DNA from: Sorghum bicolor
Taxonomy: Eukaryota > Streptophyta > Magnoliopsida > Poales > Poaceae
Assembly (NCBI RefSeq): GCF_000003195.3
Contig: NC_012876.2
Span: forward strand, 59,886,407-59,950,406
Direction of reading: 5' to 3'
Length of the DNA stretch: 64,000 nt
Shown piece after piece: positions 1,357-40,937 of this stretch. The position numbers and the translations under genes are program-made. Each line of letters starts with the position of its first letter. Position 1 is the first letter of the stretch. The notes below the pieces were generated by a model. It made no database searches. It had not been told where the DNA came from and was given only the letters and a program-made list of their open reading frames with translations.

Positions 1357-3657
1357 CTAATAATCATTCCTTTTGTTCTGTTCATTTGTGCCATTATGAA
1401 TTATTTTTGCATTATTTCCTTTTCCATGTAAGAAACATTCTCTCAACTTTGGTGAACCTATAAACAGTTTAGAGGATGGTAGCACAAAAATTTCTTCCAC
1501 TCCAATCATTTGATTCATGTTGTCATGTTTTATCTTTAGAAGATCAAACGTTTCATAAAATGGATGTTGAGAACTAATGTTATTCCAAAAATTATTGTGG
1601 CAACAAAATTCATTCAAGGGTTTAGAAGTATAATTTTTAAACTCAATGCTCCAAGGTGTGGATGAACAACTTTTCAGTGTATAGGCTTTGCTTTGCACAA
1701 GATTTCTATCTTTAAGTGGATGGTACGAACATGCTGACAACATGAATTGATCAAAACCATAAGCACCAAGCATTTGTTGCATCTTAAAAGATTTCTCACT
1801 TTGTTTATCTCTCAACATTTTTGGGTCTAAATCAGCAAACTTGTTATATGTTACACAAATGGCATGAACCTGGAAGGTATCTACAACATGTTCTCCAATC
1901 AAGACAAATGTAAACTGGAAGCTATGAGTAGTATTCAATGAGCCCAAAGATGTTATGTTAGAAATTTTCTCAAGCATTTGTTCAATATTGATAGGCATGT
2001 TAAGCATAGTATAACACAAACATTCAAGAGGAGATATCCTTGTAAACAAATCAGCACAAGTAACCGACTGGATGAGGTGTTGTTTGTTGTTATATGAAGT
2101 GTTGCAAGGATCATTCAAAGCACAAAGACTATCATCAAAAATAAATTCAGCACTTGTATCAACATGAGTTCCAGTCAAATCAGCACAAATGTTTTGGTTA
2201 TGTTTTATTGCTGAAACAGTGATATCACAAGTACTCAGTATGTGTTGAACATTCAGATTTGATTTATTTTTCATGTATTTTAAATCCAATGATTCTACAT
2301 GTACCAAGGTTTGAATCTCTGAATTTTTAAATTCATTGTTGATCTTAGATGGTTTTGATGAATTAACGAAAGGGTTGAGAAATGTGCAGCCATCTCTAAG
2401 ATGTATGAGCATTGAAACATAATGCATCGTATGACACATATGAATGCAAATCATCATGTATATGAACCATATCAAACCATAGAAAAGATCATGTACGATT
2501 GAACTTTGGTTATCAACTTGCAAAATTTCAGCACACGAGTGAACATGTGAAATAATCAAATCAGTGCAAATATTTCGTGTATGGTTAATCCCATTTGAAC
2601 CATGTGTATTATCATAATTATGTGCCATTTTATTTTGCAAACTCAAATCTGATTTATTTTCAATAACTTTTAGACTTTTTGGTGGTGCAAGTACCAACGA
2701 TTGCTCCTCTGAAATCATACGGTTATCCATGTCATGGTTCAGGTTTTGGGCAACACACAATGGGTTTAGTTGAATGGCTACCTTCTCATTTCTCTCAACA
2801 AGTATGGTGTTGTCTTGAGCATCCATCTCTTCCCTATTCTCATCACCAACCTGCACATTTGGAAAGACAAAACTAGAAGTAGTGATGAGAGTGTTAGTTT
2901 CAAAGATATCCTCACTTGGCCTGCATTCTAAATATCTATTTTTCTGTGGTGTATCTCTCACACTCTCATTGTTGACACTCTCAACCTTACAGTGGGTGGA
3001 ATCACTCAACTCACTTTTGTTTTCACTCTCTCTCATTTTGGCAATGTGGCTCTCATTCTCACATAGGTTTTGATGCACAATTACTTCAATGTCTTGTGAA
3101 GCCACATATGCATGTGTATCGTTGTCATTGACAATCACTTGTTCTTCCTCATCGAAAATTGGGGGCTGATCATAATTCACAACATTATTTTCTTCATGAA
3201 CCTGCATTGCAAAAGGAACAAGAATAGAAGGTATTATGATGTTAGAAGTAAATAATTCCTCACATGATTCATCTTTTTTTTCTCTCAATTTTTGTGGATC
3301 ACTCTCACATAGAGTTTTGTGGCTCTCCTCAAATATTGTGGAATCTCTCATCTTCTCACTGAATTTTGATTGGTGCCACTCTTTCTCACGTATGGTGGAA
3401 TGTCTCATCTTTTCCTTTTGATTTCTCTCACTCAATTTTGGTTGGTGGCACTCTTGCTGAATTTTTCTTTTGGGGGACACGCAGTAATCTTCATCATTAA
3501 TGAGCACACGGGGGCGAATGCTATGCCCATGAGCACCTCCTCCATGTTGTCCACTATGGCCAAAGAGACCACAGCGAGAGTTGGCTGAGCTATGTTGTTT
3601 AGCCCGACCACGCACCACAGGAAGACGTTCATCAAACATCTTCTCCATGGCCTCCAC
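1357..3657 (-). CDS. Element-encoded ORF (766 aa), gag-like N-terminus, otherwise unrecognised
   Basis: This uninterrupted 766-codon ORF fills most of the interior of the nested retrotransposon and is read in the element's sense direction. The first 60 or so residues (an RGRAKQHSSANSR stretch, then Gly/His-rich, then RPRVLINDEDY) resemble the N-terminal leader of grass gypsy Gag proteins. The remainder is rich in Ser, Asn, Lys and His and contains Glu/Arg/Lys-rich stretches with KMRxSTI-like repeats. I see no CCHC zinc knuckle, no DSGA/DTGA protease motif and no YxDD motif. It is probably a remnant or replacement of gag in a non-autonomous element. Its length without a stop suggests it is either very recent or under constraint. 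The function is unknown. Confidence 0.6.
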   Translation of the reverse strand: MEAMEKMFDERLPVVRGRAKQHSSANSRCGLFGHSGQHGGGAHGHSIRPRVLINDEDYCVSPKRKIQQECHQPKLSERNQKEKMRHSTIREKEWHQSKFSEKMRDSTIFEESHKTLCESDPQKLREKKDESCEELFTSNIIIPSILVPFAMQVHEENNVVNYDQPPIFDEEEQVIVNDNDTHAYVASQDIEVIVHQNLCENESHIAKMRESENKSELSDSTHCKVESVNNESVRDTPQKNRYLECRPSEDIFETNTLITTSSFVFPNVQVGDENREEMDAQDNTILVERNEKVAIQLNPLCVAQNLNHDMDNRMISEEQSLVLAPPKSLKVIENKSDLSLQNKMAHNYDNTHGSNGINHTRNICTDLIISHVHSCAEILQVDNQSSIVHDLFYGLIWFIYMMICIHMCHTMHYVSMLIHLRDGCTFLNPFVNSSKPSKINNEFKNSEIQTLVHVESLDLKYMKNKSNLNVQHILSTCDITVSAIKHNQNICADLTGTHVDTSAEFIFDDSLCALNDPCNTSYNNKQHLIQSVTCADLFTRISPLECLCYTMLNMPINIEQMLEKISNITSLGSLNTTHSFQFTFVLIGEHVVDTFQVHAICVTYNKFADLDPKMLRDKQSEKSFKMQQMLGAYGFDQFMLSACSYHPLKDRNLVQSKAYTLKSCSSTPWSIEFKNYTSKPLNEFCCHNNFWNNISSQHPFYETFDLLKIKHDNMNQMIGVEEIFVLPSSKLFIGSPKLRECFLHGKGNNAKIIHNGTNEQNKRNDY

Positions 3658-4399
3658 TAGTGAGTTTTGTAGTTGGCATAACTCAGCCCGCGAAACTGGT
3701 GTTTCTTTTTATCCATATCGACCACTACGTACGCTCGAATTAGATCCTGGCATGTTAGCACTTATGCAAGATATAGTAGAATGGGTAATTTTGTGGAATC
3801 ACACAACCTCACCTCTTACTTACCAATGCTCTTTTCTGTTCTCAAGGACAGTGAATTGTGCTAGTGTAGCAGCTCAACAGAAGTGATTCCGAGGTCGCAA
3901 GGATTACGAGTCAAATGTCCCGGTTTCAGTTTTTGGTGGAGCTATAGGTGGCTAAACAAGGGAGGCTACGGTACTGAAAATCAAGTGGTTTGATGTGCTC
4001 AAAAGATATAATGTTGCTGATATATAAATCACCAAGATCTGAATATGTAAACTAAATTTTTCAGTGAGCAAACCGCAATACAACCCCTATCCTCTTCTTC
4101 TACTTTTTCTGTTCTTTCTCTTTTCTTTTCTCTGATTTTTTTTTCACTGACTTTTTTTGAACTCTTTTTTATACTAACAGGGGTGCGGATAACAGATGAA
4201 ACACAACACAATATATGTAAAGAGGGTGAGTAGCAACTTGATGAACACAAAAACACAAGATAACAGTACCGTCAAAAGGCTTTAGGATTTTTTTGTGGCT
4301 TTTTCAGTGGACTATAGGTGATGAACAAAACAGTAGCAAACGATAGATAATCTAAAGGTAGATATGTGGATGATTGAGAGACCTACTGTGACAACGAAA

Positions 4400-4413: not shown

Positions 4414-5091
4414 TGATAGGTTACCGATATGAATGGGTACGAGGGTGGCCCGATCTTCACGACAGTAGATCAAAAGAACAAGGATAACTTGCTGCGAACA
4501 GCGGGTAACTAGCTTTATACCTGACAAAGGTTGGATGCGACCAAGCGACGGGGAGAGAGGCACCGAAACCACGAAGACTTCGACTCGATCTCCAAACGAC
4601 CGCAGAACCACAATCCGAAACTAATCCACACAATACGGCGCAGCCGAATGGAAGCCGTAGAGCACGAAGTAGGGGAACCCAGAGGATTCACTTCACAAGT
4701 CCAAGAAGAACAAGGAAGAACAAAGGTTGAGTAAGGCACTCAGCAGCATGGCTGCAATATTATGTAGTTTATCAAATCATCAAAGGTTGTAGCTTGACTT
4801 GGAGCTTGTGACATCTTGCTTGTTGGCATGGTCATATCATCCTCCCCCTCTTGAAAAGGAGTCGTCCTCGACTCTAACTCTTCTGATCCAAAGAGTTGTG
4901 CTAGGCCATCGGTTTGTAATGTTGTGATAACATCGCAATCTTCTTGTTCCATGATAGAAAGGTGTTTGAATCTATAGTCATATAAACCAAGTAGTAGCCT
5001 TGTATGTGGAAACCTAAATGATTTGGAATTAAGTTTAGCTTTCACCTTGAGTGGATGCTTGAATGTTGATTGCCTTAGTATGGTCTCATCA
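4414..5091 (-). repeat. 5' LTR of the nested non-autonomous element
   Basis: This 678 bp LTR is next to the primer-binding site. The TSD copy AGGAG follows at 5092-5096, after which the outer LTR resumes. Confidence 0.93.
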
Positions 5092-5739
5092 AGGAGAGAG
5101 CCAAGGAGGAGCCGGATCTGTCGGATCTTCCTCAACATTGTATATTTGCAGCAACCAGTTTGTCTTTGGTAATCTCCAGGTACTTCAATTCTATAATTCT
5201 TAAGTGTTTATTTAACTTTCATATTTATCTTTAAGTTATTTATTGGATTCTTGCTTGCATCAAGTGCTCTAGTTCTTTGATATGCTAGAGTAGTAATTAA
5301 TAGGTTAAGCATGGTGCTTAGTCTTGCAATTACCTGGAATTGCACCCAATTTAGCGTATTGTTGTGGCAGCCCCAGGATCATGACAGTCCTGATGGCCGA
5401 CGTATTCCACCTCGTTCGGATTGGTGTTGTAGGACCGTAGTTAGAGCTTCCTAGCCCCTATCTCATCTCTTTCCGTGGTTAGTGTTCTGATGTCCCAAAA
5501 TATATAACCTTAGAGTAAATCCTGATTCCTAGATCAACCTATAGAACTCTTAGGAAAATTTCTCTCTACCGTACAATATATATAGTTATCCTTGCGTTCT
5601 AAAACTCAATTAGTATACTTCACGTTCCCCGTGGAAAATCGATACCTTGGAATACTCCCAGATGAAAGCTACATCAGTATCCGTACGCTTACGGATTTTT
5701 CTGTGTGCATTTAAAATACCCAACACCAGCCATCGCAGA

Positions 5740-5996: not shown

Positions 5997-6872
5997 AATC
6001 CAATCCTACCATCCCTTACCTTGGTCGTGCATGCGTCGAGGGTGCATTAAGCTACCACTACCAATGAGCTCCTCTGTGACACCATGCCACAATTGATTGC
6101 ACCCTAAGTCGGTTTATCTCCTGTGGCAGGGCCAACTATCGGTGCCTAGGCTTGGGTGCCACCGATTTCCCTAGAGCCATGTGCCCTGGAGATTGTCGTG
6201 GTGGTGCTACTGATTTGTTTGTTCAACCCTGGTAAGGCAGGGGTGGGGTTGGTGAGGAGTAGATCCCACCTTCTTAGTCGCCGGCCATGGTGGAGGAGCA
6301 GAGCTTCTCAGTCCTTCCTTCCCCTGTACACGATCGCTGTCGAGATGAACAAGGTGAAGGGGGTAAGGTCACCACTCTAAAGAATCTCTGTTCCAAAACC
6401 GTACATAAGGTTTTCATCTCATACAGCTTCTCCCTTCTATACTCTCATATGGCTTCTCCCTTCTATACATAGTACTAAGCGAAAAATCTATAGAATAAAA
6501 ATAGAATTAGTCCCATCTCATTATGGACCGAAGGGGGCTGGTATTTTTCCAAGAAATCTCTAGCCAACCTTCCCCCAAGAGGTTTTTCTTAACACCAATG
6601 AATTATATTAATGCTAGAGGAAAATGATAGCCTCCAAGAATTTCTTTGTTCTCAATGCCTCCTATTTAGAGGAATTAGCCACTTCAACGACCTTTGATGG
6701 TTACCAACTAATCCAAATAGCCAAATAAAAGCTAACTTAGTCAGACTTAGCTAGGATATGACAAACAAACACTAGTATATATAGTGGCTTGATTTGGACA
6801 TGATAACTCAAGCTTGGCTTAGTTTTTTAGCGAGGCTAACTAGAGCTATACAACCAAACACACCCGTATTTG
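5997..6872. other. Intergenic stretch, nothing recognised
   Basis: Short ORFs of about 60-75 codons occur on the plus strand but none shows a known domain, codon bias or splice context. The sequence may contain further decayed flanks of the ARM fragment. Confidence 0.4.
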
Positions 6873-7140: not shown

Positions 7141-7379
7141 GCCTTGTTTTTTACCAAAAAATTTTACCAAAAATTTTAGATTTCTCGTCACAACGAATCT
7201 TATAGCACATGTATGAAGTATTAAATATAGACAAAAACAAAAATTAATTGTACAGTTTATCTGTAATTTATGAGACAAATCTTTTGAACCTAGTTAGTCT
7301 ATGATTGGACAATATTTGTTAAAAAAATAAAAATATTACCGTACCCGAAATTCCAAAATTTTACCAACTCAACCAGGGC
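7141..7379. mobile_element. Tourist-like MITE, copy 2 (inverted, degenerate ends)
   Basis: This is the same family in reverse orientation to its neighbours, with CACAACGAATCTTATAGCAC, TATTAAATATAGAC and TCTATGATTGGACAATATTT. The terminal repeats have diverged. Confidence 0.7.
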
Positions 7380-7381
7380 TA

Positions 7382-7620
7382 GCCCTTGTTTAGTTCCGAA
7401 AAATTTTGGAAAATCGATACTGTAGCACTTTCGTTTGTATTTGACAAATATTGTCCAATTATAGACTAACTAGGCTCAAAAGATTCGTCTCGTTAATTCT
7501 GACCAAACTGTGCAATTAGTTTATATTTTCATCTATATTTAATACTTTATGTATATGTCTAAAGATTCGATGTGATGGGAAATGTGAAAAATTTTGCAAA
7601 ATTTTCTAGGAAACAAGGCC
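7382..7620. mobile_element. Tourist-like MITE, copy 3, TSD CTA
   Basis: The ends GCCCTTGTTTAGTT and GGAAACAAGGCC are flanked by CTA on both sides (7379-7381, 7621-7623). It lies about 325 bp upstream of the start codon of the 20-exon gene. Confidence 0.8.
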
Positions 7621-7945: not shown

Positions 7946-10900
7946 ATGGGAGAGGTGAGCTCGTTGTTGTTGCGTGGGTGCTCGCGAGAGCTAGCTAGCT
8001 AGATACCAATGGCGCGTCCGCGCTCGGCTGTTCTCTCCATGTTCGCCGCCGCACGCACCCGCCGTTGGGGTTTCTGTCTTATTGCTCTCATCTCGTATTC
8101 TCGTGTGATTTCGTCGTGGGTTGCTGTGTGCATGCGTGGCGTGTGTTTTTTTTGGTGGATTTCCTCGCGAATGTGGCGCGCGCTTCCGTGCTTGCCTGAC
8201 GCCGCTGATGATGGTTCGCTGAGGCGAGCGGCCGTGGATCAGCTGGGTTTTCACCTTCTTTTTCTTCGTTTTTTGTTTGTTTGGAGTTGCGATCGTGGAC
8301 GACGATCGAGTGCGTGCGCGTTTGTGTTCCGCTCTTCCATGCTGCGATTCCGCGGGGAGTCAGCGGGATTTGGGGTTTTTCTGGGTGGGGCTCTCCTGCG
8401 ATTCTGCTCGGCTTCTTCGCTCGCGAGTTCCGCCGGTGCCGTGTGTTTCCCAGCTACAAGCATGCAGCGCGAGTGCCGGCGGTTTCGGCTACGAAATCCG
8501 GACATTTCGCTGAGTTTCTCTGCTGCTCCTCTCGAATTTGTGCTGCTTCACCCCTCCGTTGCACCTCATCCTGGTTGTGGTTTCTGCCGGTTGTGGTTCG
8601 TTGCTCTTAGGGTTTTGCTTCGCCTTGCGTTTTTCCTGCCTTTTGGCATCGGAAGGCTGTTGGAGTTTGGAGCTCGTTTCTATTGCGGCCCTTTTCCTGT
8701 GACGCGGTTTGGTTTCGATTGAAAACTCGTCGCCATTGCTCTGGTTGTTTGCCTTTTCCTGTGCCGCGGTCTACTCCGATCGATTTCGGTGGTGCTGGGT
8801 AGCTTTCGCAGCCGTGTTGACGGCGGGGATGAAATTTCTGCGCAACAATGTGGGAGCCTCGGGAGCACCGAGCAGATGAAATTCCTGCTCGGATATGCCG
8901 CCCATTCCATCACATTTTCTAGCTTTCCTTTTGGGTTTGGGTTTTTTTGCGGGTTTTCGGGTTCGTTTGGGACGTTTCGTATGCTTCCCCGTTCCGAGGC
9001 CTACTACTACTACTACTATACTACTACTTCCTAGGTGGTTGATTCAAATCTTTGGCACAAATCTCTTGCGTGGCTGCCCGGCTGGGTAGCTTCGTATCTG
9101 GTACAAGTCCGTGTCGTGTCATTCGCAGAATCGCAGTAGCGAAGTGAACAGGCCTGTTAAACCGACCGGACATCTATTGCTGATGTGACCGAGCTCTATG
9201 TGGTGTCACTGAACAAGGCCGGGTGTGAAGTCTTGTCTTTGACTGGCTGCATTTTTGTTTTCTTATGGTGATTTCGGATTCTTTTTCAGTTCCGTGCTGT
9301 GCTTTTGGAAGTTCGTTTTAAGCCTTTTTCGTGAGTTGCTTGGGTAGTGCAGTGAATTCTCTAGCAGTAGCAATTTTTTTTCTCAAGGTGGCTGATGCAT
9401 TTCTCGGATTCCATTCTGGCTTGTGGCAACCCAAGGATAGCATGCGGATTTTGTTCCCAGATTCCACTCTGGCCCATCTTTTTTTTAGCCAGCTGTTTGC
9501 AGACAGCTTGGGGGGTACTGCAATAAGAGTTCGCCTATTATATGCTTGTACAAGTTCCAATTAAAACAACTCGAGCAATTTGGTCATTCTTTTGTTCTAA
9601 ATACAGCTTGTGTTCAGATGAGTTGTCTTTTGAATTCGCAGAACTCAAGTGGAGAAACCAGCGGGGCAGGAACCAGGGCCAGCATGGAGCGCGTGAAGCA
9701 CGAGAACTTTTGCCGCGCCGTCGCGGAGGACAACACAGCGCTCCTCCTCTTGGCGGTGGGGAACTCCAGGAAGGAGGCCCTGTGTCGCATCCGCAAGGGC
9801 TCCGACGCCTCAAGGGTGCTGGACCCGGAGATGTCCGCGAGGCTGCTCCACCTCGCTTGCAAGCACGACGCGGTGGAGTGCGCGAGGCTGCTCCTAGAGG
9901 GCGGCAGCGGGATCGCGGCGGCCCCCATTGACGCAAGGGACCAGCTCACGTGGACGCCGCTCCACGTCGCAGCTGAGACCCACTCGACCAGGTGCATAGA
10001 GCTGCTACTCTCCAAGAACGCCCGCACTGATCTCAGGGTGGTTGACGGGAGACCACTTCTCCCGCTTGAGATCGCGCTAATGAGCAGGAGGTTTGTGAAT
10101 GTATTCCATTGCTAGTAATGCATGACTTTGACTGACTTCAGTCCCCAAATTTGCTGCAATAACTGTACTGTATGGTGTGTTTCCTCATTTCTGCAGAGTT
10201 CAAACTAAATGGTCGGTGGACAACTCAATTGAGGACCTTCTGTCTTTTCTTAAACAAATGGTACGGATCCTCATTATTACACGTGTGCATTGTCTGAATT
10301 GTTCATTCATAGCTATTCTGTATGATTAAATGCATCTTTTTTAGCCAAGCTTGACACCTCTCTCTCTATGTGTAGGATCTTAATGCAGTAAGGCTCCTAG
10401 CAGAGGAAACCAGAGTGGTTGGGGAGCTTGCGTACAGATACGCCATGGAAGGAAGTGTCCCTGCATTGGCAATGCTGCTTCTGGTGGTTGAAGAGAAGAT
10501 ATCGCCACAAGTGAGTGTGGTGATACAGGGCGTCAGCACAAAGCGGTCAATCTACAACTCCATTGTTGATGAGGCTTTATCAATGGGAGATGCTTCAGCT
10601 CGTGATGGAAATGAAAGGAGAAAGGCCCTGCTATGTGAGATTCAGCTGCTTAACCAATTTGGATCGGCATCATGGAGGGACCACAATGACAGGAGAACAT
10701 TACCCCCTCTACTGAGAGCTGCTAAGGTACCACTAGCCACTGTTCATTTAGTAACACGTGCCTTTGTCAGTAGGATGGCTACTTCCAAATTCTATATGCA
10801 GGGTTCTTCTTTATGTCGCTTTTTCATGATATCTGACTCCATTAAGTATGCCACCTTCTATAAAATGTAAACACACTCTTAGGTACCACTATGACTAGAA

Positions 10901-13900
10901 TGTGAGTTGTGTAGTCAATGTATGTTTGTGGGTCTAAACTGATTTTCATGAAAAATGAAACCTGAGTTTTTTCTAGAGTTATGTTGATTCTATGATATGC
11001 TAATTGTGCTATGCATCAAACGTTGAAGTTTTTAAGGCTACAGCTATATTTCTACAGAGACTTCTGTTGATCAGCCTTTCTTCTATAGGTTGGAGATATG
11101 AATGTCATAAAGATGCTCCTGATGGGGAATGTTGATGTCAATGAAGCCGACTCTGAAGGAAACACAGCACTTCACTGGTGCCTTAGTGGTGCCTCATATA
11201 CCAAGGAGCCAAGGTGCACATCTTAGAAATTACATTTTCCAATCCATTGAACCATAAGCTAGTTGTTTTCTTACATCTTAGTTTTTTCTGTCATTGTGCA
11301 GGATTGTGTGGCTTCTGCTCAAGAATGGCGCAAGAGTTTTCCAGTGGAACAAATTAGGGCTCACACCAGTACACAGCGCTGCAGCTAAGGGCAATTACAA
11401 AGCTCTTCAGGTATCCACTTGCTACTTACTTTCCTAATTACTCTGTTGTGAGTTATGAGAGTGACTAATTGGTTTTATTTTTCTTTGCTTCAAAGTCACT
11501 TCTGCTTCATGCCCAAGATTGTGTTGATATACCTACCAAGACCAAAGAAACCCCATTGTTCTTTGCAGTGAACAATGGTTTTGTGGATTGTGCAAAACTT
11601 CTTTTGTGCTTTGGGGCTGATACCAAAGCCCGGAACCTGAGGTGCGTAGATCTTCAGAGGACAGTCAAGTAATTGAATAAAAGAATGAGTTGCGAAATGA
11701 AAATAGAAAAGAGTGATTTAGTCTATAGTCTGATGTACTTAACAAGGATATGCGATTATTTTACATGAACAGAAAGCAAAGACCAATTGATGTGGCAACA
11801 TCCCAGGACATGCGTTTCATTCTTAGCTCTGCAAATGTGTTACCATGTAAGTTACATACCGACGTCTGCTTCCATTTCTTTCTTGTAGTTTATTTTATCT
11901 CTGCAGCTGTAATGGACAAGTCAGGACTTCACTTTGATGGAAGCAATTTAATTAATTAAATTGCATATAGATTGGTTACATTTCTGTTGGTATTACTAAA
12001 TAACTTTGGACATCTAGAAATTTCCATTTTAACAGAAATGTGTTCTATCTTCAGGGAACCATAGCTCACCTCAACAGAATCGTGTGATGAGAAAGAAAAT
12101 TTACAAAGAGCTTCTTGGTGATAAATTTGATGATCATGATAAGGATTACTGTGATGATAAGTATGTCTGTTATACACTACAAGATATTACTTTATAACAG
12201 CTACTCTACATGATTAATTGAATTAACGTCTTTACTTCTCACCTGTAATTGCTTTGAATTTTGCTGCAGCTATACTGGGTTTAAGACATCAGTAGGCCAA
12301 TATGATTTTCGGTCCAGTAATCATTCTGCACAAGGGCTTAAGAGTAAAAGCCAATATGTTCCAAAACAAGCACAAGGTTCAAAGTTTGTGCCTCGGGTAA
12401 GTTAAGCATACATCCCTTTATCTGCCTGAATTTAATTCCTTCACATCAAAGGAAATACAACGGTCAGAGTTTTGTGGATTTTGTTTGAAGATGACTTTTA
12501 ACAGCTTCCATGACCCATTGTTATATAATTTCCATTTCAAAACTTAAGTTATAATTGACATTAACTGGTCAGTTAATCTGACATGCATAACATGAAATTT
12601 TCTAGGCTAAGGCATCATCGAGTGGAGCTTCTACCGCCACTGCTGCAAAAGTTCCTGCAACTCCTGTTAGTTTTGTCATATTTGATGTAGTTATTTTTGT
12701 ATTTCTGTGGTGGTGTTCTTCAGGGTTGCAGTTTTTTGAAATAATCTTCAGGGTTGCAATGAAGAAGCACTTGAGCTGTAAAACAGAATTGCATTCCAAA
12801 TCTGATCTGTCTTGTGCGGGATATGAATTGGCATATCATTAGTGTTCTCATGTGTAATATGACTCATACATGTTTATTGGTATACTTCGGGATATGAATT
12901 AGCAGATTTAGTTCTGTCTATGATTTCAGTCACCAAATGTACATAAAGGCAAAAAGAAAAAGTGGGATCAATGATAAAATTTAATCTCTTTTGGGTAGTT
13001 GTGTCTGAGCATTACCATATATGTGCATAATCAATTTAAGTTGTTTTACATACAAAATGGCCAAGTATGTGCAGTATAATAGTTGTGATGAAATGATATC
13101 TTGTATTTTATTTTGGATTTATTGTTACCAACTGTTTTCTGATATTTTGATCTGTTATTAACTTTGCAATAGGGCCACCCTGCTGCCCCTGTGGTCCCTG
13201 CTACATCAGTTGCAAGAACACCTACACAAGCTCCTGTTGCCACAGCTGAAACGTGGGCCATCTTTCCCCCTTCATCTTTTGTGGTGACCCTATGGCTTCT
13301 CTTATGCCATTGTTACTGTCTTCCACAGGGCACCTCCAAGTGCACAGCCTCAGGCTGCTCCTGCTGCTACGCTTGCTGCATCGTAAGCTCCAGAACCTTT
13401 ATAATCACTGCTTTGAAATATCCATTAATATCTTTTGGTTCTAGAAATAAAGAACAAGCTTTCATTCCACTTCTGTGTTCTTTTCTGTTTGTGCAAGACT
13501 GATCAGGGAATTATATCATACGCTTCATTAAGGATCTTTTATAAACTGGGAACAAATATATTACCATTCTATAAGCCTGTGCACCTTGGACATTTTTTGT
13601 TAAGTTGTGGTGTAGTACACGTTTTGGTTGGTATAATTTAAAATAGAACATTATAACCTTGTGATGACAAGTATTTATATATAGGGAGCATATATGGTGA
13701 AAAACTCTATCTAATTTTTTTTCAAAAATCTTGGAAAATCCACCATTTATAGATAAAGTTATTGTATGGTGTCACACAAAATTTCAAGTCCACACATCAC
13801 ACCACCATTTGAGAGATACAAATATAGTAAATTCAGGTCGAGGCATAATAAACTAACCTATATTATTTTCCCTGTTCATATTTATCAAACAGTTGGTTCT

Positions 13901-16900
13901 TGTATCCTGCAAATGGGATATGATTTTTGAGACCTAGGAATTATTTTTGACAATCTGATCCCTTATTTATATGTATATATAAAGGTTATTTCTTCTTATT
14001 TATATATTATTATATTGTAGACACCACATAGGATGGCTCATGCTTATCGGTTCTTGCAAGCCTACATCAAAAGTTCTCTTTATTTCTTGTTGTTCTATCG
14101 TAGTATAGTACATTAATCCTGCTCTTTCATGTGCCTGTTCTACAGTGGTGATGCTGATGTGTACAGTCAGGCAGCTTCAAACCTTGTATCTGGCAACAAT
14201 CTGGAACAGATTATCCAACAAATTCTTGACATGGGTGGTGGTACCTGGGAACGTGATACAGTTGTCCGTGCTCTACGTGCTGCATATAATAACCCTGAGA
14301 GAGCTATAGACTACCTATATTCTGTAAGTTTCATGCTAATCAATTGTTTTACCAATGCATTGCAGCTTCATCCTTCTTCTGATGTGTTCAATTGTTTCTT
14401 TCATTTTCTCTAAAACCTGCTCAATACTTTTTCTGGTATATTGTTATATGTGAATGAAAAGGTAAATGTCTTATTGTAAAAAAAAACATCAAACTTTGCA
14501 GGGGACAGCAATTATATTTTACTTAAAGGAAAATATGCTTAACACCTTTAGGATACTTAAGTTTTTTACTCGTGCAAAGGATTGCATACAAATTGTCACT
14601 GAATTGATCTGGCTTTCCTGGTAGGGAATTCCTGTGAATGTGGAGACTCCTCCTGTTGCTGGAGCACCTGCTGGTGGCCAACAAACAAATCAGCAGGCCC
14701 CATCACCTGCTCAGCCAGCAGTTGCATCACCAGTGCAGCCATCCGCTGCCTCTGCACGGCCCGATGCAAATCCTCTGATCCTTTTTCCTCAGGTATGTGC
14801 TGTCAGAATAGGCATGGACTTTAAATGTTTGGACCTTTTTTTTTTCACTGTGTGAACTGTTATACTCTTTTAGAAACTATTCACCTATCCATACATATTA
14901 TGTTTGTGACATGACTGCCATGAAAGGAAATGCCATCTTAACACTTTTCCTGCAATATGGATTACATCTATTATTTAGCTGTTTGTGTTGCTGAGTTGCA
15001 GCCTTGCAGGCTATTGCATGTATGATCAGACAATGATAGATGTAATCCATATTGTAAAAGTACTATGATCATACATGCAGTGATAACCAGGCTGCAGGGT
15101 GTAATTGTCAGACAATAGATAACCATTGTACTTTTACATTGCGCCTCTGCTTTATTAGTATAGTTTTACATTACTTATGAAGTTATTCTTGAGGCCTCAG
15201 GACTTGTTTCTAATTTCTAGTGCCAGACACTAATCCTAAATACAAATTTTATTTTAACCTGGTAATCCTAAATTCTAGATGCAGCTACTATTCTGCTTGT
15301 AAACTCAATTTTCAAATTTTTATGGAATAGTGTAGCTTTGCCTTTAGTTTTATGTGCTTCTATGACGTAATTTGAGAGGATCTATGAGTGGATACTTACT
15401 TTTTTTTGTTCAGTTTGCTTCTTATGCATACATTCCTATATCTGTGAATACTTACTTTTAATTAGTCTTATTATAGCAACTGATTGAGTCACTATTACAA
15501 ACTCAGTTAGCTTTATTAACTCGTAGGTCAATCTCCATTTCTGCGGACGTAAAATCCGAACATCTCTTCTACCTGGTCTCTCCATTGTGAAGCTTGTTCA
15601 GCTTGCTCTATTGGAGAACAATATCAGAACAACAGATTTTTATTTACTGTTAAATGGAAGACTCTTGGATGAGCATGTGACTGTTAATGACATTCCGGCA
15701 GAATCAAATATCCAAGTCCGTCCAAGAGTTCGAGGCGGAGTGTGAGTTTTTTTACATTTAGCAACTAAAATTCCTCACTATTTGGCTGACAAGTTTTTGG
15801 TAGGCTGTTTTTGGTATTCCATAACTTGAAAAACTTGGATGTCTATTTTATTTGCAGGGATGAAGTCCATGAGACCACTTACAGAAGTATCGATACTGTG
15901 ATCAACAAAAGGGGGCATGAGAAGATGTTTAGAAGAGTCATTATTCCGAAGCAATTGGGAAAGCGTTATGCTTGTTTGTTATCACCCTTCTCACAGTACA
16001 TTTTATTTGGTATCTTACGTTGTGTTTGTCGGGAAGCACACCAGTTTGGCAAGTGTTACAACGGAGCATTTACTTTAGCTGATTTTATGATTTCAAAAAA
16101 AGGTCACATTAAGATGAGCTCTTCAGTTTTCTTGGACAATTACACCCCTCAGGGAGGTGAAGCTGACTATAGGCAGTTATATAGGATATTACTGGTATTT
16201 GTTGACGCAGAGCGGGGACTTGTGCCTCTCTACTTTGCTCACCTCCTCGACACGCTGCGCAGTACTAATGAGCTTAATCGGCGTGATCCAGATTCCATCA
16301 CTTTTTTGCTAAATCACCCGAGCCTTCTAACTTATGCAGAAAGACATCGGCTCTTTTGTTTGATTGACCAGATGATTCTTAAGTTACCTAGGGAAGAGAA
16401 AGAGAAAGTATTTAAAAAGGTGAATTCAATTCCTGGGTATTCTAAGTGGGATAGCAATTTTGAAGTCATGAAAGAATTTAATAGGGTAAGTATTTTTGTG
16501 TTCAGTCTATGTTCCTTAGGTTAAATTTGTATTTAACACCATTTTTCAGGTGTACAATTTCCCTTCTGGCAAAGGCATACATAGATATGCAGGTTCTGGA
16601 TTGAATACTACGATCCACTTTTGTCGCAATTACTTGAGCCACCCAGAAGATTGGGTCAGTATATGCATATGTACCTTTATTAGTAGTTGTATGCTAGACA
16701 TTGTGTCATTTGTTGTGTGTCTCAGCCATGTGTACATGTAGTTGTGTACTAGTGTACTGACTTTGTTTCTGTCAGGTGTCAATACTATTTGCTGAGGTGG
16801 CTATATCTCTGCTTGTAGAAGATATGCTGGCCAAAGTCATAAAAGAGTTGTTAGATTATCAGCCTCCAGTCTATGTTGGTACATGGGATCTAATCGGATT

Positions 16901-17039
16901 GTAAGGACAATTTCCATCACTGATGTTGTTTGTGTGTAAGAAGTTGTATTAATAATCTTGTTATATTTGTAGGATTGCCAATGTAAGGGCGGATACAGGC
17001 ACAATGTTAAATCAGGATGGTGCTGCTTACTCAGACTGA
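7946..17039 (+). CDS. Ankyrin-UBA-ubiquitin-like-KEN protein (RNase L-like architecture), 20 exons, 1079 aa
   Basis: Exons: 7946-7954, 9642-10090, 10197-10260, 10376-10726, 11089-11213, 11302-11410, 11496-11641, 11773-11846, 12055-12160, 12270-12396, 12606-12665, 13173-13252, 13329-13382, 14146-14323, 14625-14792, 15527-15741, 15858-16485, 16550-16654, 16776-16900, 16973-17039. All junctions are GT-AG and the sum is 3240 nt with phase kept throughout. Seen: ankyrin-type repeats at residues ~70-135 and ~290-430 ([34 protein letters not shown]); a RAD23-like UBA ~598-640 ([26 protein letters not shown]) in Pro/Ala-rich linkers; a ubiquitin-like fold 701-771 ending VRGG; a kinase C-lobe-like stretch 773-920 lacking HRD and DFG; and a KEN-like domain ~920-1060. 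In the last, W969, R1007 and H1012 match the RNase L/IRE1 nuclease pattern, while the Asp position is T1001. Inference: a regulated endoribonuclease or pseudonuclease linked to ubiquitin signalling. The ligand and substrate are unknown. A stop at 16902 would end an unspliced variant. Confidence 0.82.
7955..9641 (+). other. Long first intron of the ankyrin-KEN gene
   Basis: The donor GAG|GTGAGC follows a nine-base coding mini-exon (Met-Gly-Glu) and the acceptor is TTCGCAG at 9635-9641. The intron is T-rich with many pyrimidine runs and holds a TAC microsatellite near 9002-9028. Long ORFs on both strands here (for example 8009-8722) are GC-driven and have no domain. A long 5' intron is common in grass genes and can enhance expression. 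The alternative start, Met18 in exon 2, would place this intron in the 5' UTR. Confidence 0.65.
14953..15079. repeat. Interleaved inverted repeats in intron 15
   Basis: Arm A (14953-14971) pairs perfectly with A' (15036-15054) over 19 bp. Arm B (15015-15028) pairs perfectly with B' (15066-15079) over 14 bp. The order is A-B-A'-B', so the two stems overlap rather than nest. Confidence 0.7.
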
Positions 17040-18487: not shown

Positions 18488-21400
18488 TCAAGATGGGCTA
18501 AAGATATCTAACATGTCCATCTTGCTACAACTCAACTCGACTTCACTAGGTTCTAAACCTTTTGTAAAACAGTCTGCTAGTTGACTACGCGATTTTACAT
18601 ACTTTAACTTTAGGACTCCACTATCTAGCTTCTCCTTGATGAAGAATCTATCAATCTCCACATGCTTGGTGCGGTCAAACTGGACCGGATTGTTTGCAAT
18701 ATTGATTGCAGCAATATTATCACAATGAAGCATCATTGTCTCATTTCTTAACACTCGTAGTTCCTTAAGCAAGCCTTTTAACCACAACATCTCACACAAG
18801 CTCAATGCCGTTGCTCTATATTCAGCCTCCGCAGTAGACCGAGCCACAACTGCTTGCTTCTGGCTCCTCCATGAGACAAGATTGCCTCCCACAAACACAC
18901 AATACCCAAAGGTAGACCTCCTATCATCTTTGCTACTTGCCCAATCAGCATCACAATAGCCCTCCAAATCAAGGTGACCATTCTTCTTGAACCATAACCC
19001 TCTTCCAGGGGTTCCCTTCAGGTACCTCAAGATCCTGTAAACAACCTCCATATGTCCTGTTCTTGGATCATGCATATATCTGCTCACCACACTCACTGCA
19101 TAGGAAATATCAGGCCTTGTATGACACAGGTATATCAGTCTTCCCACCAATCTCTGATATGTCTCTTTGTTCACAGAATCTCCACACTCGGCACTGATCT
19201 GATGGTTTTTATCAATAGGAGTACTACACGGCCGACATCCAAGCATGCCCGTTTCAGTCAACAGATCAAGGACATATTTTCTTTGAGAGAGAACTATCCC
19301 CTTAGGTGACCTCGCAATCTCAATCCCAAGAAAATACCTTAGTGGTCCAAGATCCTTTACTTCAAAGGCTTTTCCCAAATTCTCCTTCAAACACCTGATT
19401 TCCTCCACATCATCTCCTGTAATCACAATATCATCCACATATACTGCCATAATGGTGACAAATGTTCCTCTATGCTTGTAGAAGACCGTATGATCACCAT
19501 TACATTGAGTGTAGCCCATACCACATACTGCTCTCCTAAACCTATCAAACCATGCCCATGGTGATTGCTTTAGTCCATAAAGTGACTTTTTAAGTCTGCA
19601 CACTTTCCCAACAGTTTGACTATTGGCAAACCCCGGTAGGATTTCCGTATAAACTTCTTCTTGTAAGTCACCATGAAGAAATGCATTCTTCACATCCATC
19701 TGATGTAGAGGCCAACCAAAGTTAACTGCACAGGAGATTAAGGTCCTAACAGTACCCATCTTTGTCACAGGAGCAAAGGTCTCATCATAATCAATGCCAT
19801 AGGTTTGACTATAACCTTTTGCAACCAGCCTTGCCTTATACCTATCCACCTCCCCTTTTGGGTTTTGCTTCACGGTGAAGACCCACTTGCAGCCTACAGC
19901 TCTTTTTCCTTTTGGAAGTGGGACCAATTCCCACGTCTTGTTCTTCTGAAGAGCATGCATCTCTTCTCTCATTGCTGCACTCCAGTTAGGATCCTGTTTT
20001 GCACACCTCCAGTCCCTTGGAATAGGCACTGTTTGTAAAGATGCAACAAATGCTCTATATGAAGGTGAAAGACGAGAGTACGAGAGGAAGTTGGCAATGT
20101 CATGATCTGTACTAGGATGCTCAAAACCATAGCGAACAAGAGGTTTTCCAAAATTAGACCTAGTATCCCTACGTTGTGCAAGAGGTAACTCTACATGTTC
20201 AAGGTTAGAGGGGACATTACCGCTTGGTGGAGAGAGGTCCGAGGAGAGATTTGGGACTGGTGTAGCAATTTGTTGTGGTTGTGGTGCATTGATTTTCTCC
20301 CCCTGACTCCTAAACCGTTTCCTCTGGTACACTATTATCTCTTTTGCAACTGTTTGCTCTCCCTGACTACCAGACTGTCTTCTCTGGTACACTGTTGGCT
20401 CCTTTACAATCACCTCTTCGTTGTGTACATCATTTGTCTCCTCATTCCTAGCGCCAACTACCTCCCCCTCGTTCCCATCACCAATTATGCCTTCACCTTC
20501 ACCATTATCATCCCTCATATCCACATCATCATCTCTTTTCTCCCCCTAACTAACTTCAGGCATATCCATTGGACACGGGATAGTACCAACAATGACTTCC
20601 TGTTGATTCTCCCCCTCTCTACGGTCACCCTCGATGACTGGAGAGAATTCCTCCAAGAACAGGTGAAGATCGCATGGTTTTGTATAGTATGGTTCAGACT
20701 CCCTGAATGTCACATCCATACTCACAAACAATTTCTTTCCAACAGGGTCCCAACATTTGTAACCCTTTTGTGTAGAAGAATATCCAACAAAAATACACTT
20801 CACCGCTTGAGGATCCAACTTTCCAACTGACGGCCTATGATCCCTCACAAAGCAAACACAACCAAATACCTTTGGGGGTACTTTAAATTCATGTTGCTCC
20901 AGCAACAGCTCTGCAGGTGACGCCATACCAAGAATCCTAGATGGCATACGATTGATCAAATATGCCGCTGTTAGCACCGCTTCACTCCAAAGATATTTGG
21001 GCACATGCATTTGAAACATCATTGACCTTGCCACCTCTAACAAGTGTCGATTCTTTCTCTCCGCTACACCATTTTGAGATGGAGTGTCAGGACAAGTAGT
21101 TTGATGTATAATCCCATGCTCCGAGAGATACGCCTCAAAAACATTGTTCACATATTTCTTTCCATTATCAGTTCGGGTAATCCGAATTCTAGCATCAAAC
21201 TGATTTGCAACTAACTTATGGAAGTCCTGGAAACACCGAAGGACCTCATGTTTACCCCGAAGCATGTAAACCCATGTCATACGACTATAGCAATCAATAA
21301 AGGTGATAAACTACTTAAATCCACTCACAGATGTAACTGAGCAGGGACCCCAAACATCAGAGTGTACTACCATAAATGGTTCACAACTCCGGAGGCCAAT

Positions 21401-22681
21401 ACTAGGATAAGTTGTCCTTGTATGCTTCCCAAGTTCACAAGCATCACACACAAGTTTCTTTATGTCCACATCTCTAAAAACTTCAGGATATAATTTATTC
21501 AAACTTCCAAAAGGTACATGTCCTAACCGGCGATGAAGCAAGTAGATCTCTCTCTCCTGTGTTCCAGTAGCTACTGCCAATGCTGACTGCTCCTGGTTGA
21601 TGAGCCACAACCCATTACGCCTGACTCCAGTCCCAATCACTCTCCCCGTCCTCTTCTCCTGAAAAATACAAGAATTTTCATCAAATGTAACAATGCATTT
21701 GAACTGATCAACAAGAGCACTAACTGAGAGGAGATTGACTGGGAAGGAAGGAACATGCAAAACAGAAGATAGATGAAGAGATGGAGTGCATTCTATAGAT
21801 CCTACACCATGAATGGGTTGAGAGGTACCATCAGCAGTTTGTATTGTTTCAGTATAAGAATGTGGAGTGTATGTTCTAAAAAAGCTAGATATGCCTATGA
21901 CATGCTTGGAAGCTCCTGAGTCAACAACCCACTCTATGTTATGCCTATATGTGGATGCAAGTGCCTGTGCCTGAGTACCTTTGCTCATATGGGCATAGTT
22001 GGCAAAGTTACCAAAATGACTGGTGGTGGCAATCAAAGGACCATCTGAAGTGGTTTTGGAATACCATTGCTCCCACTGCTTGACTTGCTCACCGGTCAAT
22101 GTGACCGATGGTAGAACTCCTGTGGTACTAGTAGTAACCTGAGAACCACTCTCCCAGATAACAACATTAGCATGAGGACCACCACGGCCTCTGCCACGAC
22201 ATCCTGCACGTCCTCCACCACGACCACCACGACCTCCTTGATCACCACGAGCACCACCACGACCTCCGCTTCTACCACCATAGCTCTTGGGAAGGGGACA
22301 ATTATAGCTCAAGTGTCCCTCCTCTCCACAATTGTAGCACTTTCTTTCCGCCACTGAGGTGTAGGCTGACTTTACAGGATTGTTACCACTCATCATTCTT
22401 AGTCTGCTCTCCTCAATAACCATGGCTGACACAGCCTCCTCTATGGTAGGTAAACTATCCTGGTGACAAAAAGCAGCCCTCCTACTCTCAAACTCAGGAT
22501 CTAAATTCTTCAGGAAATGAGTCACCCTCCTAGGACCAATCAGATTCATCTCCAACAGCCCCTGAATCATGGACCTCATCTCATTTCTTAACTCAGCTTT
22601 GGTAATTAGTGAATCATCTCCACCATTACCACCACTCTCATGCTCACTTGCTGCCTTCTTTGCATCCTCCATCGGATCCAT
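18488..22681 (-). pseudogene. Copia gag-pol, one frame with two in-frame TAG stops and a shortened gag
   Basis: The frame is open 22681-21311, 21280-20546 and 20524-18488, all in the same phase, separated by a TAG in the integrase core (after SGFK) and a TAG before the Asp-rich linker. Gag keeps CYNCGEEGHLSYNC (CCHC knuckle) and an RGG-rich tail. It jumps from GLLEMNLIG directly to RRVTHFLKNL, so most of the usual Gag core appears to be missing. Protease has VDSGASKH. Integrase has the HRRLGH and CDACELGK zinc site and the D, D, E motifs VHSDVWG, RTDNGKKY and NGVAERKNR. Reverse transcriptase has SLYGLKQSPWAW and YVDDIVITGDD. RNase H has YCDADWA and TAEAEYRA. It acts in virus-like particles in the cytoplasm when intact. 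Confidence 0.9.
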
Positions 22682-23248
22682 CTTCTCTTCAGATCAAGAC
22701 TCCCCAAACTCTCAAATCAGCACTAGCTTCCTTTCTGAATCCCACTTTATTCAACCAATCACACAGCAGTAACAGGCAATAGCACCTTCTTCTCAACTCC
22801 CACGGGAGCAGCACTATCACAGCTAGCTACTTCCACCACCAAATTGCTGCAGGCCAGCGAGCATCAAATCACTCAGCCAGCACCTACACACTGCCGCTTC
22901 TCCTCTTGCACACAGCCACCCGCAAGCACCTGCAATGGCCTGGGCCCTTCCTGCACAGACTGCCGACGGCCGCCCGCACGCTGCTCCTCCCCTGCTGCTC
23001 CGCTTCCTGCACAGATGGCCGACGGGCGCCCGCACGCTGCTCCCCGGCTCGCACCAAAGTCCACGCTCCCAGTCAGCTGCGCATACGTCGAGGCCCGCGT
23101 GCCACCGCACCGAGGCGCCCGCAGGCTGCTCCTCCTGCGCTGCTCACGTATGCGTCGCGCCTCCACTCCACCGATGCGCCGCCTCTCACAGCCACTCGAC
23201 GCGCGCCGCCGTCTCCAGAGGTAATCGAAACTCTAGCTGTGTATACCA
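22682..23248 (-). other. Copia 5' leader, GC-rich with an imperfect internal repeat
   Basis: This lies between the 5' LTR and gag. It holds two imperfect copies of a block reading CCTGCACAGA(C/T)(T/G)GCCGACG with a shared GCCCGCACGCTGCTCC end (near 22959 and 23006). ORFs in this region on either strand are composition-driven. Confidence 0.5.
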
Positions 23249-28742: not shown

Positions 28743-30158
28743 TCAGAGTGGCATGATCATATGCGCACGAGACCAGGATCCTGCAGGAAGCGTGAAGACA
28801 GACACGACCTTGCGACGAGGCACGTCGAGGCTGACCTCGTACGACTCCGTGACTGCCCACTGATTCTCCTTGCTCTTGTACTCAAGGTCATGCACGAAGA
28901 CGTGCGCGACGCCAGGTCGCGCTCTGCCAACGACGGGCCAGCTCACGATCCGCCGCCGCAGCCTGCGCTTATTGTCGCCGCCGCCGCCCACCGGAATAGC
29001 GTCGTCCAGGAGGTCGGCGACGCACAGGGAGGAGCACGACGCGTCCTCGTCCTTCTCCCACCTCCAGCCGCCGTCTGTCGACAGCGGGAACTTGAGAGTC
29101 CACGTCGTGAGCGCCACCGTCACCTCCTCGCCGCCGTCCATGCATACGAGCTTGATGGTCTCCGTGTCCAAGCAGCGCACGGAACGGTACTCCGTCGAGT
29201 CAAAAGGTCTGTGGCCGCATACCACGGGCAACGGGATGAAGGTGAACACCAAGCCGTCCTCCTCGTCGTCGTCGTCGTCGTCGTCGCCGGCGGCCGTGCC
29301 GGCGGTGCTGCTGCTGATGTTGTTGCAGACCAAGATCCCTGCCCACAGGTCTACCCAGCAAAGGGAGGTGCTTGAGACGGCGAACACCGTCCCAGCATTG
29401 AAATTGAAGAAGTCGTATTCATCATCAGGAACCGGGAGAGGGAGCATCACCTCCTTCCGTATCCACTGGTGGGCACCGGCACGCGAGCCGCCGTCGCCGG
29501 AGCCGGAGCGGGGCGAGCACCACGTGAACAGGGTGGCCTTGTTCGTTGGAAAGCCGCGATCAGTACTATGACGGTAGAGCTCGGCGAGGAGGTAGCCGCC
29601 GTCGTCGTCGGTGCGTAGGACGGCGACCCCGGCCGACGCGATGGGGTGGTGCGGCGAGTAGTTGTCGTCGTCCCTGAGCCAGTTGGCCGGCAGTGTTGGC
29701 ACGACGGCGACGGATTTGGCGCGGGTGTTGAGCACCAGGTAGCACCCTGGCAGGTGGCGCCAGGAGTGAAAAAAACTGTAGCAGTCGCCCAGGCAGAGCG
29801 CGAGGAGGTCGTCGTGAGCGCTCGCGATGAAGCCGGTGGTGGCGCAATGCTCCGGTGGCCAAGAGACACGAAGCGTCAGGGAGTTGACGGCGGGGGCGGC
29901 GGCGAGCTGCTGAGGAAGGACAGGGTCGACGCCGTCCAGCAGCCTGCGGTAGTAGCCGACGTCGTGCCAGCCTGCGCGTGCGAAGGTCACCGGCTCCCTG
30001 CGCCACCCGCTGCCGGTGGTGGTGGTGGTGCGGGAGCGGGAGGCCTTGAGCTCGCGAAGGATCTCGTGCCGCGTCTGGTGGCATCCTGCAGGTGTCTTGT
30101 CGATGATCTCTTTTACTTCGTCGATGAAGTTCACGCGGCGGTGGAACAAGACGTCCAT
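28743..30158 (-). CDS. DUF1618-family protein (471 aa), single exon
   Basis: The ORF is open to 30398, but I place the start at 30158 (Met-Asp-Val-Leu-Phe-His). The extra 80 residues are not family-like, and a TATA box (minus strand of 30267-30274) lies inside them. Family signatures include SLTLRVSWPPEH, an AHDDLLALCLG block, PGCYLVLNTRAKSVAVVP, FAVSSTSLCWVDLWAGILVC and LVFTFIPLP. These match grass DUF1618 proteins, whose function is unknown. An Asp-rich run from a GTC repeat interrupts the middle (near 29265-29290). The protein ends soon after SVFTLPAGS, without the C-terminal exon of the related gene at 34516-37188. A MITE sits directly downstream, so the 3' end may be truncated. Confidence 0.85.
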   Translation of the reverse strand: MDVLFHRRVNFIDEVKEIIDKTPAGCHQTRHEILRELKASRSRTTTTTGSGWRREPVTFARAGWHDVGYYRRLLDGVDPVLPQQLAAAPAVNSLTLRVSWPPEHCATTGFIASAHDDLLALCLGDCYSFFHSWRHLPGCYLVLNTRAKSVAVVPTLPANWLRDDDNYSPHHPIASAGVAVLRTDDDGGYLLAELYRHSTDRGFPTNKATLFTWCSPRSGSGDGGSRAGAHQWIRKEVMLPLPVPDDEYDFFNFNAGTVFAVSSTSLCWVDLWAGILVCNNISSSTAGTAAGDDDDDDDEEDGLVFTFIPLPVVCGHRPFDSTEYRSVRCLDTETIKLVCMDGGEEVTVALTTWTLKFPLSTDGGWRWEKDEDASCSSLCVADLLDDAIPVGGGGDNKRRLRRRIVSWPVVGRARPGVAHVFVHDLEYKSKENQWAVTESYEVSLDVPRRKVVSVFTLPAGSWSRAHMIMPL

Positions 30159-37188: not shown

Positions 37189-37491
37189 GAGGAAGAGGAA
37201 GAGGAAGAGGGAGAGGGGAGGAGGTGAGTCGAGGAAACCCTAGAAGGCGATCGATCGAACGCGATGGTGGGGATGTTGGACGGTGGATGCCTTGTCCTGC
37301 CTGGGAATGGGCCACGACGACCCGAAGGGCCGTTTGGGTAGGCGAACCAATGGGCCCTTAACACGTATGGGCTCTCCCTAGAAAAATTGTGGATTGAATC
37401 TGCCCTGGGCCCTAGCGCAGTTTGCGACGCGGTGGCTACTCTACGCCGCGCTAATGTAGCTTGGCGCCCCACCAAGTGTATATATGATTTA

Positions 37492-40694: not shown

Positions 40695-40937
40695 GGCCTT
40701 GTTTAGTTCCAAAATATTTTGCAAAATCGACACTGTAGCTTTTTCGTTTGTATTTGACAAATATTGTTCAATCACGGACTAACTAGAATCAAAAGATTCG
40801 TCTCGTCAATTTTGACCAAACTGTGCAATTAGTTTTTATTTTTGTCTATATTTAATACTTCATGCATGTGTCTAAAGATTCGATGTGATGGGGAATCTGA
40901 AAAATTTTGCAAAATTTTTTGGAAACTAAACAAGGCC
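40695..40937. mobile_element. Tourist-like MITE, TSD CAT
   Basis: The ends GGCCTTGTTTAGTTCC and GGAAACTAAACAAGGCC are flanked by CAT at 40692-40694 and 40938-40940. Confidence 0.88.

What the first reader, a model, noticed from the sequence alone, without database searches (positions are those of the whole stretch)
7946..17039. A plant gene with RNase L-like order: ankyrin repeats, degenerate kinase-like stretch, KEN nuclease-like domain, plus UBA and ubiquitin-like modules
The 20-exon model keeps phase at every GT-AG junction and totals 3240 nt. Seen: the C-terminal region has a [12 protein letters not shown] block at the place of the KEN HPFFW motif, then KWDSNF (W969), then FCRNYLSH with R1007 and H1012 five residues apart. 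Established: RNase L uses W632, D661, R667 and H672, and IRE1 has the same Arg/His spacing. The Asp position here is T1001. In animals, ankyrin plus pseudokinase plus KEN is the 2-5A-activated RNase L; I know of no described plant counterpart with UBA and ubiquitin-like insertions. Inference: an RNA-cleaving or RNA-sensing stress protein coupled to ubiquitin or proteasome shuttling, or a pseudonuclease.
Basis: partly seen in the sequence, partly recalled or inferred. Interest (0 to 1): 0.92.

Follow-up and report, generated by a model that had tools for sequence, protein, structure and literature searches.

The report
Sorghum ankyrin gene with RNase-like tail
A sorghum gene joins ankyrin repeats, a piece of the ubiquitin-shuttle protein RAD23, a ubiquitin-like module and a very divergent RNA-cutting-type domain that keeps the four catalytic residues of IRE1, so it may be a plant RNase tied to the ubiquitin system.

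Summary
The 20-exon gene is real: my splice gives 3240 nt in phase, and 1076 of 1079 residues equal an NCBI protein, Sorghum bicolor LOC8054829 isoform X3. Ankyrin repeats and a UBA score above Pfam cut-offs. The UBA segment is a RAD23 fragment. Exon 16 is a ubiquitin-like unit ending in RGG, without a Pfam hit. Pfam finds no kinase or KEN, broad IRE1 profiles fail, and both fold models are unusable. Yet residues 773-1065 align with human RNase L better than all 1000 shuffles, and Y994-x12-R1007-N1008-x3-H1012 reproduces the IRE1 catalytic set, seen in 111 of 120 IRE1-family sequences and 296 of 200,000 shuffles. The kinase-like stretch lacks an N-lobe. A published survey already lists a monocot KEN expansion and a ubiquitin-KEN fusion, so the kind is known; the ankyrin-RAD23-UBL-KEN combination is a new variant. 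Most likely it is a divergent, probably active KEN RNase on a ubiquitin-binding ankyrin scaffold, not a 2-5A-sensing RNase L.

The parts
7946..7954 (+). exon 1 of the model (MGE); NCBI isoform X3 starts instead in an extended exon 2 (MSCLLNSQ)
9642..11846 (+). exons 2-8: ankyrin-repeat region (exons 9642-10090, 10197-10260, 10376-10726, 11089-11213, 11302-11410, 11496-11641, 11773-11846)
   Evidence: splice; Pfam Ank_2, Ank, Ank_4, Ank_5, Ank_3 above cut-off; PDB ankyrin matches
12055..12396 (+). exons 9-10 (12055-12160, 12270-12396): linker without a Pfam match; ends in phase 0
12606..14792 (+). exons 11-15 (12606-12665, 13173-13252, 13329-13382, 14146-14323, 14625-14792): RAD23-like block with UBA; phase 0 at both ends. 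Exons 14-15 are RAD23 by search; the Ala/Pro-rich exons 11-13 are attributed to RAD23 by eye only
   Evidence: UBA 605-642, E 5.9e-11; exons 14-15 against RAD23B, E 4.3e-12
15527..15741 (+). exon 16: one ubiquitin-like unit (aa 701-772), ending RGG (15731-15739) then V
15858..16485 (+). exon 17: C-lobe-only kinase-like stretch (H833-x3-K-x2-N840 at 16039-16062; no HRD Asp), then the first part of the KEN-like domain (HP925 at 16315, W969 at 16447-16449)
   Evidence: kinase motif recalled
16550..16654 (+). exon 18: catalytic-type motif Y994 (16586-16588), R1007 (16625-16627), N1008 (16628-16630), H1012 (16640-16642)
16776..17039 (+). exons 19-20 (16776-16900, 16973-17039): C-terminal part and stop; AATAAA at 17088 and 17109

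Best explanation
The gene is a mosaic of three modules joined at phase-0 introns: a plant ankyrin-repeat gene (exons 1-10), an internal piece of RAD23 with its first UBA (exons 11-15), and a ubiquitin-like plus kinase C-lobe-like plus KEN-like unit (exons 16-20). The last unit most likely belongs to the lineage-specific KEN expansion of monocots. It probably is a metal-independent endoribonuclease that uses Y994 and H1012 as the acid-base pair and R1007/N1008 to hold the phosphate. Without a kinase N-lobe it cannot be switched by nucleotide binding as RNase L and IRE1 are (recalled), so bringing two KEN domains together would have to come from the ankyrin part or from the UBA binding ubiquitinated partners. 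Shown: gene model, ankyrin, UBA/RAD23 origin of exons 14-15, motif positions. Inferred from weak statistics: UBL and KEN homology. Inferred only: mosaic origin, catalysis, and ubiquitin- or ankyrin-driven activation.
For: In-phase 20-exon model equal to an NCBI sorghum protein over 1076 residues. RAD23 match 4.3e-12. Phase 0 at both module borders, and GC3 differs by module: 0.53, 0.27, 0.35, 0.41. Region 773-1065 against human RNase L: 0 of 1000 shuffles as good with two matrices; pig 2 and 4 of 1000. Y-x12-RN-x3-H in 111 of 120 IRE1-family sequences and 296 of 200,000 shuffles; with HP and W upstream, 102 of 120 and 3 of 200,000 (the 120 are those listed of 198 found). The roles of Y1043, R1056, N1057 and H1061 in yeast Ire1 are stated in PMC3149027 (passages). 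Exon 16 against ubiquitin: 1 to 4 of 2000 shuffles. PMC3710099 reports a KEN expansion in monocots and a KEN-ubiquitin fusion (passages).
Against: No Pfam KEN, kinase or ubiquitin hit, while the same Pfam search finds human IRE1 KEN at 3.8e-43. A profile of 42 IRE1s plus four yardsticks, and one without RNase L, do not separate the domain from shuffles (1012 and 3422 of 5000 rank higher), although the latter finds RNase L at 42 bits. A kinase+KEN profile is beaten by 135 of 2000 shuffles, a two-sequence RNase L profile by 22 of 3000, a four-sequence KEN profile by 38 of 5000. MAFFT with 47 IRE1s does not align the domain in this register. No pairwise similarity to human or yeast IRE1, none of the kinase part alone to RNase L. 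The Asp before Arg is T1001. The YFxxxFP-type stretch near the end of the yardstick KENs is not visible by eye. Single-sequence fold models have mean pLDDT 37 and 39. The motif gaps were set after seeing the sequences, and R-x4-6-H is shared by other HEPN families.
Confidence: 0.5

Rival explanations
1. KEN fold kept but nuclease lost: the C-terminus is an RNA-binding or dimerising scaffold, and the protein works as a ubiquitin/ankyrin adaptor.
For: T1001 in place of the Asp six residues before Arg; very large divergence from the KEN yardsticks; no room for an N-lobe.
Against: All four residues with stated catalytic roles in yeast Ire1 are kept at the right spacing, which relaxed selection would not favour.
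Confidence: 0.2
2. The C-terminus is not a KEN domain. The motif and RNase L similarity are chance, or it is another helical or HEPN-type domain.
Against: Colinear HP, W, Y, RN and H, pattern in 3 of 200,000 shuffles; RNase L alignment 0 of 1000 shuffles; a ubiquitin-like unit directly upstream, recalling the published KEN-ubiquitin fusion.
Confidence: 0.2
3. Young or decaying chimera without settled function: a gene fusion that is transcribed but not conserved. This does not exclude the other readings.
For: No protein with this C-terminus at E up to 1 among 3011 candidates of 208-663 aa and only itself among 4098 of 594-1889 aa; module-wise GC3.
Against: All 20 exons open and in phase; catalytic set intact; the only hit is a cluster of 15 member sequences at 90% identity (members not seen).
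Confidence: 0.2
4. Prediction artefact: separate neighbouring genes fused by the gene finder (and by the reader).
For: No transcript seen here; some introns between exons 11 and 16 are fairly large (507, 763 and 734 nt).
Against: The NCBI protein is identical from exon 2 on, which implies the same junctions; the module-border introns are only 209 and 734 nt, with phase-matched GT-AG sites.
Confidence: 0.07

Closest known systems
Monocot lineage-specific KEN (HEPN) proteins, and the KEN-UBI fusion gi:125543109 listed in PMC3710099 Table 1
   Same: Monocot, KEN-type motif R-N-x3-H, ubiquitin-like unit attached to KEN (passages seen).
   Different: The passages seen mention ankyrin repeats with kinase-KEN (lineage not stated there) but no RAD23/UBA segment; I could not fetch the gi record to compare sequences or see its organism.
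RNase L (animal 2-5A-dependent ribonuclease)
   Same: Ankyrin repeats, then kinase-like, then KEN-like; best pairwise similarity of the C-terminus among the four yardsticks.
   Different: No room for a kinase N-lobe, RAD23-UBA and ubiquitin-like units between, Asp661 position is Thr, RNase L not among the 60 shown of 429 ankyrin matches.
IRE1 (kinase/endoribonuclease of the unfolded protein response)
   Same: Y-x12-R-N-x3-H catalytic set with identical spacing.
   Different: No complete kinase; no profile or pairwise similarity. A lumenal or membrane part was not looked for.
RAD23 (UV excision repair / proteasome shuttle)
   Same: UBA1 and following linker, E 4.3e-12 to RAD23B.

Membership tests
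KEN / Ribonuc_2-5A (PF06479) | profile match above Pfam cut-off | tested here: not met
   positive control
KEN / Ribonuc_2-5A (PF06479) | catalytic residues Y, R, N, H at conserved spacing | tested here: met
   Y994, R1007, N1008, H1012; roles in PMC3149027 (passages)
KEN / Ribonuc_2-5A (PF06479) | sequence similarity beyond chance to known members | tested here: inconclusive
   RNase L 0 of 1000 shuffles pairwise, but no match to IRE1 or to broad profiles
KEN / Ribonuc_2-5A (PF06479) | KEN helical fold | tested here: inconclusive
   single-sequence models only, pLDDT 37 and 39
RNase L | 2-5A-binding ankyrin repeats | not tested
   ankyrin present, but ligand residues were not compared; RNase L not among the 60 shown of 429 ankyrin matches
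RNase L | complete bilobal pseudokinase before KEN | tested here: not met
   61 residues between RGG771 and H833, too few for an N-lobe (kinase sizes recalled)
RNase L | Asp661 equivalent | tested here: not met
   T1001
RAD23 | N-terminal UBL, UBA1, XPC-binding, UBA2 | tested here: not met
   only a UBA1 region found
Ubiquitin-like proteins | ubiquitin family profile match | tested here: not met
   no ubiquitin among 4 PDB sequence hits at E up to 10
Ubiquitin-like proteins | end-to-end similarity to ubiquitin with RGG end | tested here: met
HEPN RNases generally | R-x4-6-H motif | tested here: met
   R1007-x4-H1012; motif definition in PMC3710099 (passages)

The most novel reading that the evidence does not exclude
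A ubiquitin-gated plant RNase. The RAD23-type UBA gathers the protein on ubiquitin chains, or the embedded ubiquitin-like unit is cut after RGG by a deubiquitinase-type protease and frees the C-lobe-KEN part. In either case KEN domains meet and cleave RNA without any nucleotide-binding kinase. This would be an RNase L-like logic rebuilt in sorghum with ubiquitin in place of 2-5A.
Probability: 0.12. Interest if true: 0.87.

Novelty: new variant of a known kind. Interest (0 to 1): 0.6.

Why it matters
KEN nucleases are known mainly as the output of IRE1 and animal RNase L. A monocot protein that keeps the catalytic set but drops the kinase N-lobe and gains ubiquitin-binding and ubiquitin-like parts would show that the nuclease can be wired to another input. 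It would also give a testable entry into the KEN expansion of monocots, for which I saw no functional test in the passages that I read.

Tried and rejected
Rejected: RAD23's own UBL as the source of exon 16 (832 and 505 of 2000 global and 697 and 451 of 2000 local shuffles as good). Paralogous copies in the window: tblastn at E up to 1 finds only the gene's own exons. Broad IRE1 profiles for KEN. hhalign of the single sequence: probability 0.8% for the 4-sequence KEN profile, though in the expected register, and 0.05% and 0.1% for the two larger profiles. Fold searches were not run, because both models are low-confidence. NCBIfam gave nothing for the C-terminus, and the PHROGs matches lie in the ankyrin part. 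Paper searches for the locus name (no paper), RAD23-ankyrin chimeras in sorghum (no paper), ribonuclease 2-5A with rice (one tomato paper), KEN with Poaceae (five papers) and RNase L with plants (10 of 227 listed) show nothing on this gene by title; of these listings I opened no paper. The two papers opened, PMC3710099 and PMC3149027, were seen as passages only.

Full report
Gene model. Splicing the 20 exons at 7946-17039 gives 3240 nt and 1079 residues; every intron starts GT and ends AG and every junction stays in phase. A protein search with the C-terminal part returned exactly one protein at E up to 1, P0121, named by NCBI 'uncharacterized protein LOC8054829 isoform X3 [Sorghum bicolor]' (1084 aa, 15 members in its 90% cluster). 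It equals the model over 1076 residues and differs only in the first few. The window is therefore sorghum. The database protein comes from an annotated genome; I saw no RNA.

Domains found by profile. Five ankyrin families score above their cut-offs (best E 1.2e-31), and UBA scores 42.4 bits against a cut-off of 22.4 at residues 605-642. The 115 residues of exons 14-15 match human RAD23B at 4.3e-12 and RAD23A chains, so the UBA segment is RAD23-derived; the Ala/Pro-rich exons 11-13 are attributed to RAD23 by eye only. The block of exons 11-15 begins and ends at phase-0 introns. GC at third positions differs between ankyrin (0.53), RAD23 block (0.27), ubiquitin-like exon (0.35) and C-terminus (0.41). 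This looks like a mosaic joined by exon shuffling; the joining itself is inference.

Ubiquitin-like exon. Exon 16 encodes 72 residues, RGG then V at its end. No Pfam family is hit, and none of the 4 PDB sequence hits at E up to 10 is a ubiquitin.

Kinase-like stretch. Residues 832-840 read AHQFGKCYN: His, Lys and Asn of the kinase HRDLKxxN loop (recalled) are there, Asp is not. Between the RGG and H833 lie 61 residues, too few for a kinase N-lobe. The stretch alone (773-924) has no detectable similarity to RNase L (555 to 782 of 1000 shuffles as good). So at most a C-lobe remnant is present, and a nucleotide switch is unlikely.

KEN-like domain, evidence against. Pfam gives nothing for the region even at E up to 10, though the same search scores human IRE1 KEN at 3.8e-43. 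A profile from 42 IRE1s plus four yardsticks, and one without RNase L, do not separate the domain from shuffles: 1012 and 3422 of 5000 shuffles rank higher. A kinase+KEN profile is beaten by 135 of 2000 shuffles, a four-sequence KEN profile by 38 of 5000, a two-sequence RNase L profile by 22 of 3000. MAFFT with 47 IRE1s aligns the domain elsewhere. Both fold models were made without an alignment and are unusable (mean pLDDT 37.4 and 39.3).

KEN-like domain, evidence for. Residues 773-1065 align with human RNase L from 'DxxxxLLxHP' through KW to RN-x3-H with a score reached by 0 of 1000 shuffles under two matrices (pig: 2 and 4 of 1000). The KEN part alone (925-1065) against the RNase L KEN is matched by 29 and 8 of 4000 shuffles for human and 42 and 26 of 4000 for pig, while IRE1 gives no signal (human 2627 and 2333, yeast 1986 and 958 of 4000); against the longer RNase L piece it is matched by 10 and 3 of 1000 for human, 35 and 25 of 1000 for pig. 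The motif Y-x12-RN-x3-H occurs once in the protein, at Y994/R1007/N1008/H1012. It occurs in 111 of the 120 IRE1-family proteins listed (of 198 found), in human and yeast IRE1, and in 296 of 200,000 shuffles of the C-terminus. With HP and W upstream it occurs in 102 of 120 and in 3 of 200,000 shuffles; I set those gap ranges after seeing the sequences. RNase L has RN-x3-H, but not Tyr at that spacing (F in human, L in pig, with Tyr one residue later). In the passages I read of PMC3149027 these are the residues to which catalysis in yeast Ire1 is assigned: H1061 and Y1043 as acid-base pair, N1057 and R1056 on the phosphate.

What is known. [quoted passage not shown] The table lists KEN fused to kinase 'along with ankyrin repeats, CCCH in some', and as fused to UBI (gi:125543109) and BRCT. 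So a monocot KEN expansion is in print, and so is a ubiquitin-KEN fusion, whose organism I did not see stated. A RAD23 or UBA segment in such a protein was not mentioned in those passages, and the listings of my paper searches show nothing on this gene.

Distribution. No other protein with this C-terminus scored E up to 1 among 3011 candidates of 208-663 aa and 4098 of 594-1889 aa. The search needs shared five-residue words, so relatives below roughly half identity can be missed (my estimate). The combination thus looks restricted to sorghum and close kin, but this is not proven, and the sorghum genome itself could not be searched.

Mechanism. Most likely: an ankyrin scaffold with a ubiquitin-binding UBA carries a divergent, probably active KEN RNase whose pairing is driven by partners or ubiquitin chains rather than by 2-5A or ATP. 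I put KEN homology at about 0.75, activity at about 0.55 and ubiquitin gating at about 0.25. It may work like RNase L but should not be filed as RNase L: the complete pseudokinase and the Asp are tested and absent. Membership in PF06479 by profile is also not met.

Noticed in passing
18488-22693 (-): Copia-type retrotransposon ORFs downstream of the gene: RVT_2 (E 6.9e-76) and integrase core with retroviral SH3 domain; gag-like zinc-knuckle ORF at 21311-22693 judged by eye.
   Followed up: partly
7147-7616: Self-complementary repeat about 330 bp upstream of the model's start codon, with many similar pieces across the window (for example 40697-40926 at 90% identity to 7384-7614); looks like a MITE family.
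   Followed up: partly
28743-30398 and 35311-37239 (-): Two DUF1618 ORFs (E 1e-14 and 2.2e-19), probably paralogues.
   Followed up: partly
45627-47135 (+): MULE transposase domain (E 1e-21) and SWIM finger (E 6.1e-05) in separate ORFs, a FAR1/MULE-like gene or remnant.
   Followed up: partly
47883-48560 (+): Apparently single-exon cyclophilin-type peptidyl-prolyl isomerase ORF (E 1.3e-41) next to the MULE-like pieces.
   Followed up: partly
58204-60132 (-): Long MFS transporter ORF (Sugar_tr E 1.2e-46); by eye a Pht1-type phosphate transporter (recalled).
   Followed up: no
55531-55760 (-): MIR6217 microRNA precursor, 204 bits, model positions 1-228 of 228.
   Followed up: no
916-1356 and 4740-5207 (-): Two ORFs sharing a long identical stretch, on either side of a 783-aa ORF (1357-3708) without Pfam hit; probably a duplicated end of a retroelement.
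   Followed up: no
6392-6432 (-): Plastid group II intron domain V match barely above cut-off (53.8 against 53 bits), overlapping a 26-bp tandem duplication.
   Followed up: no
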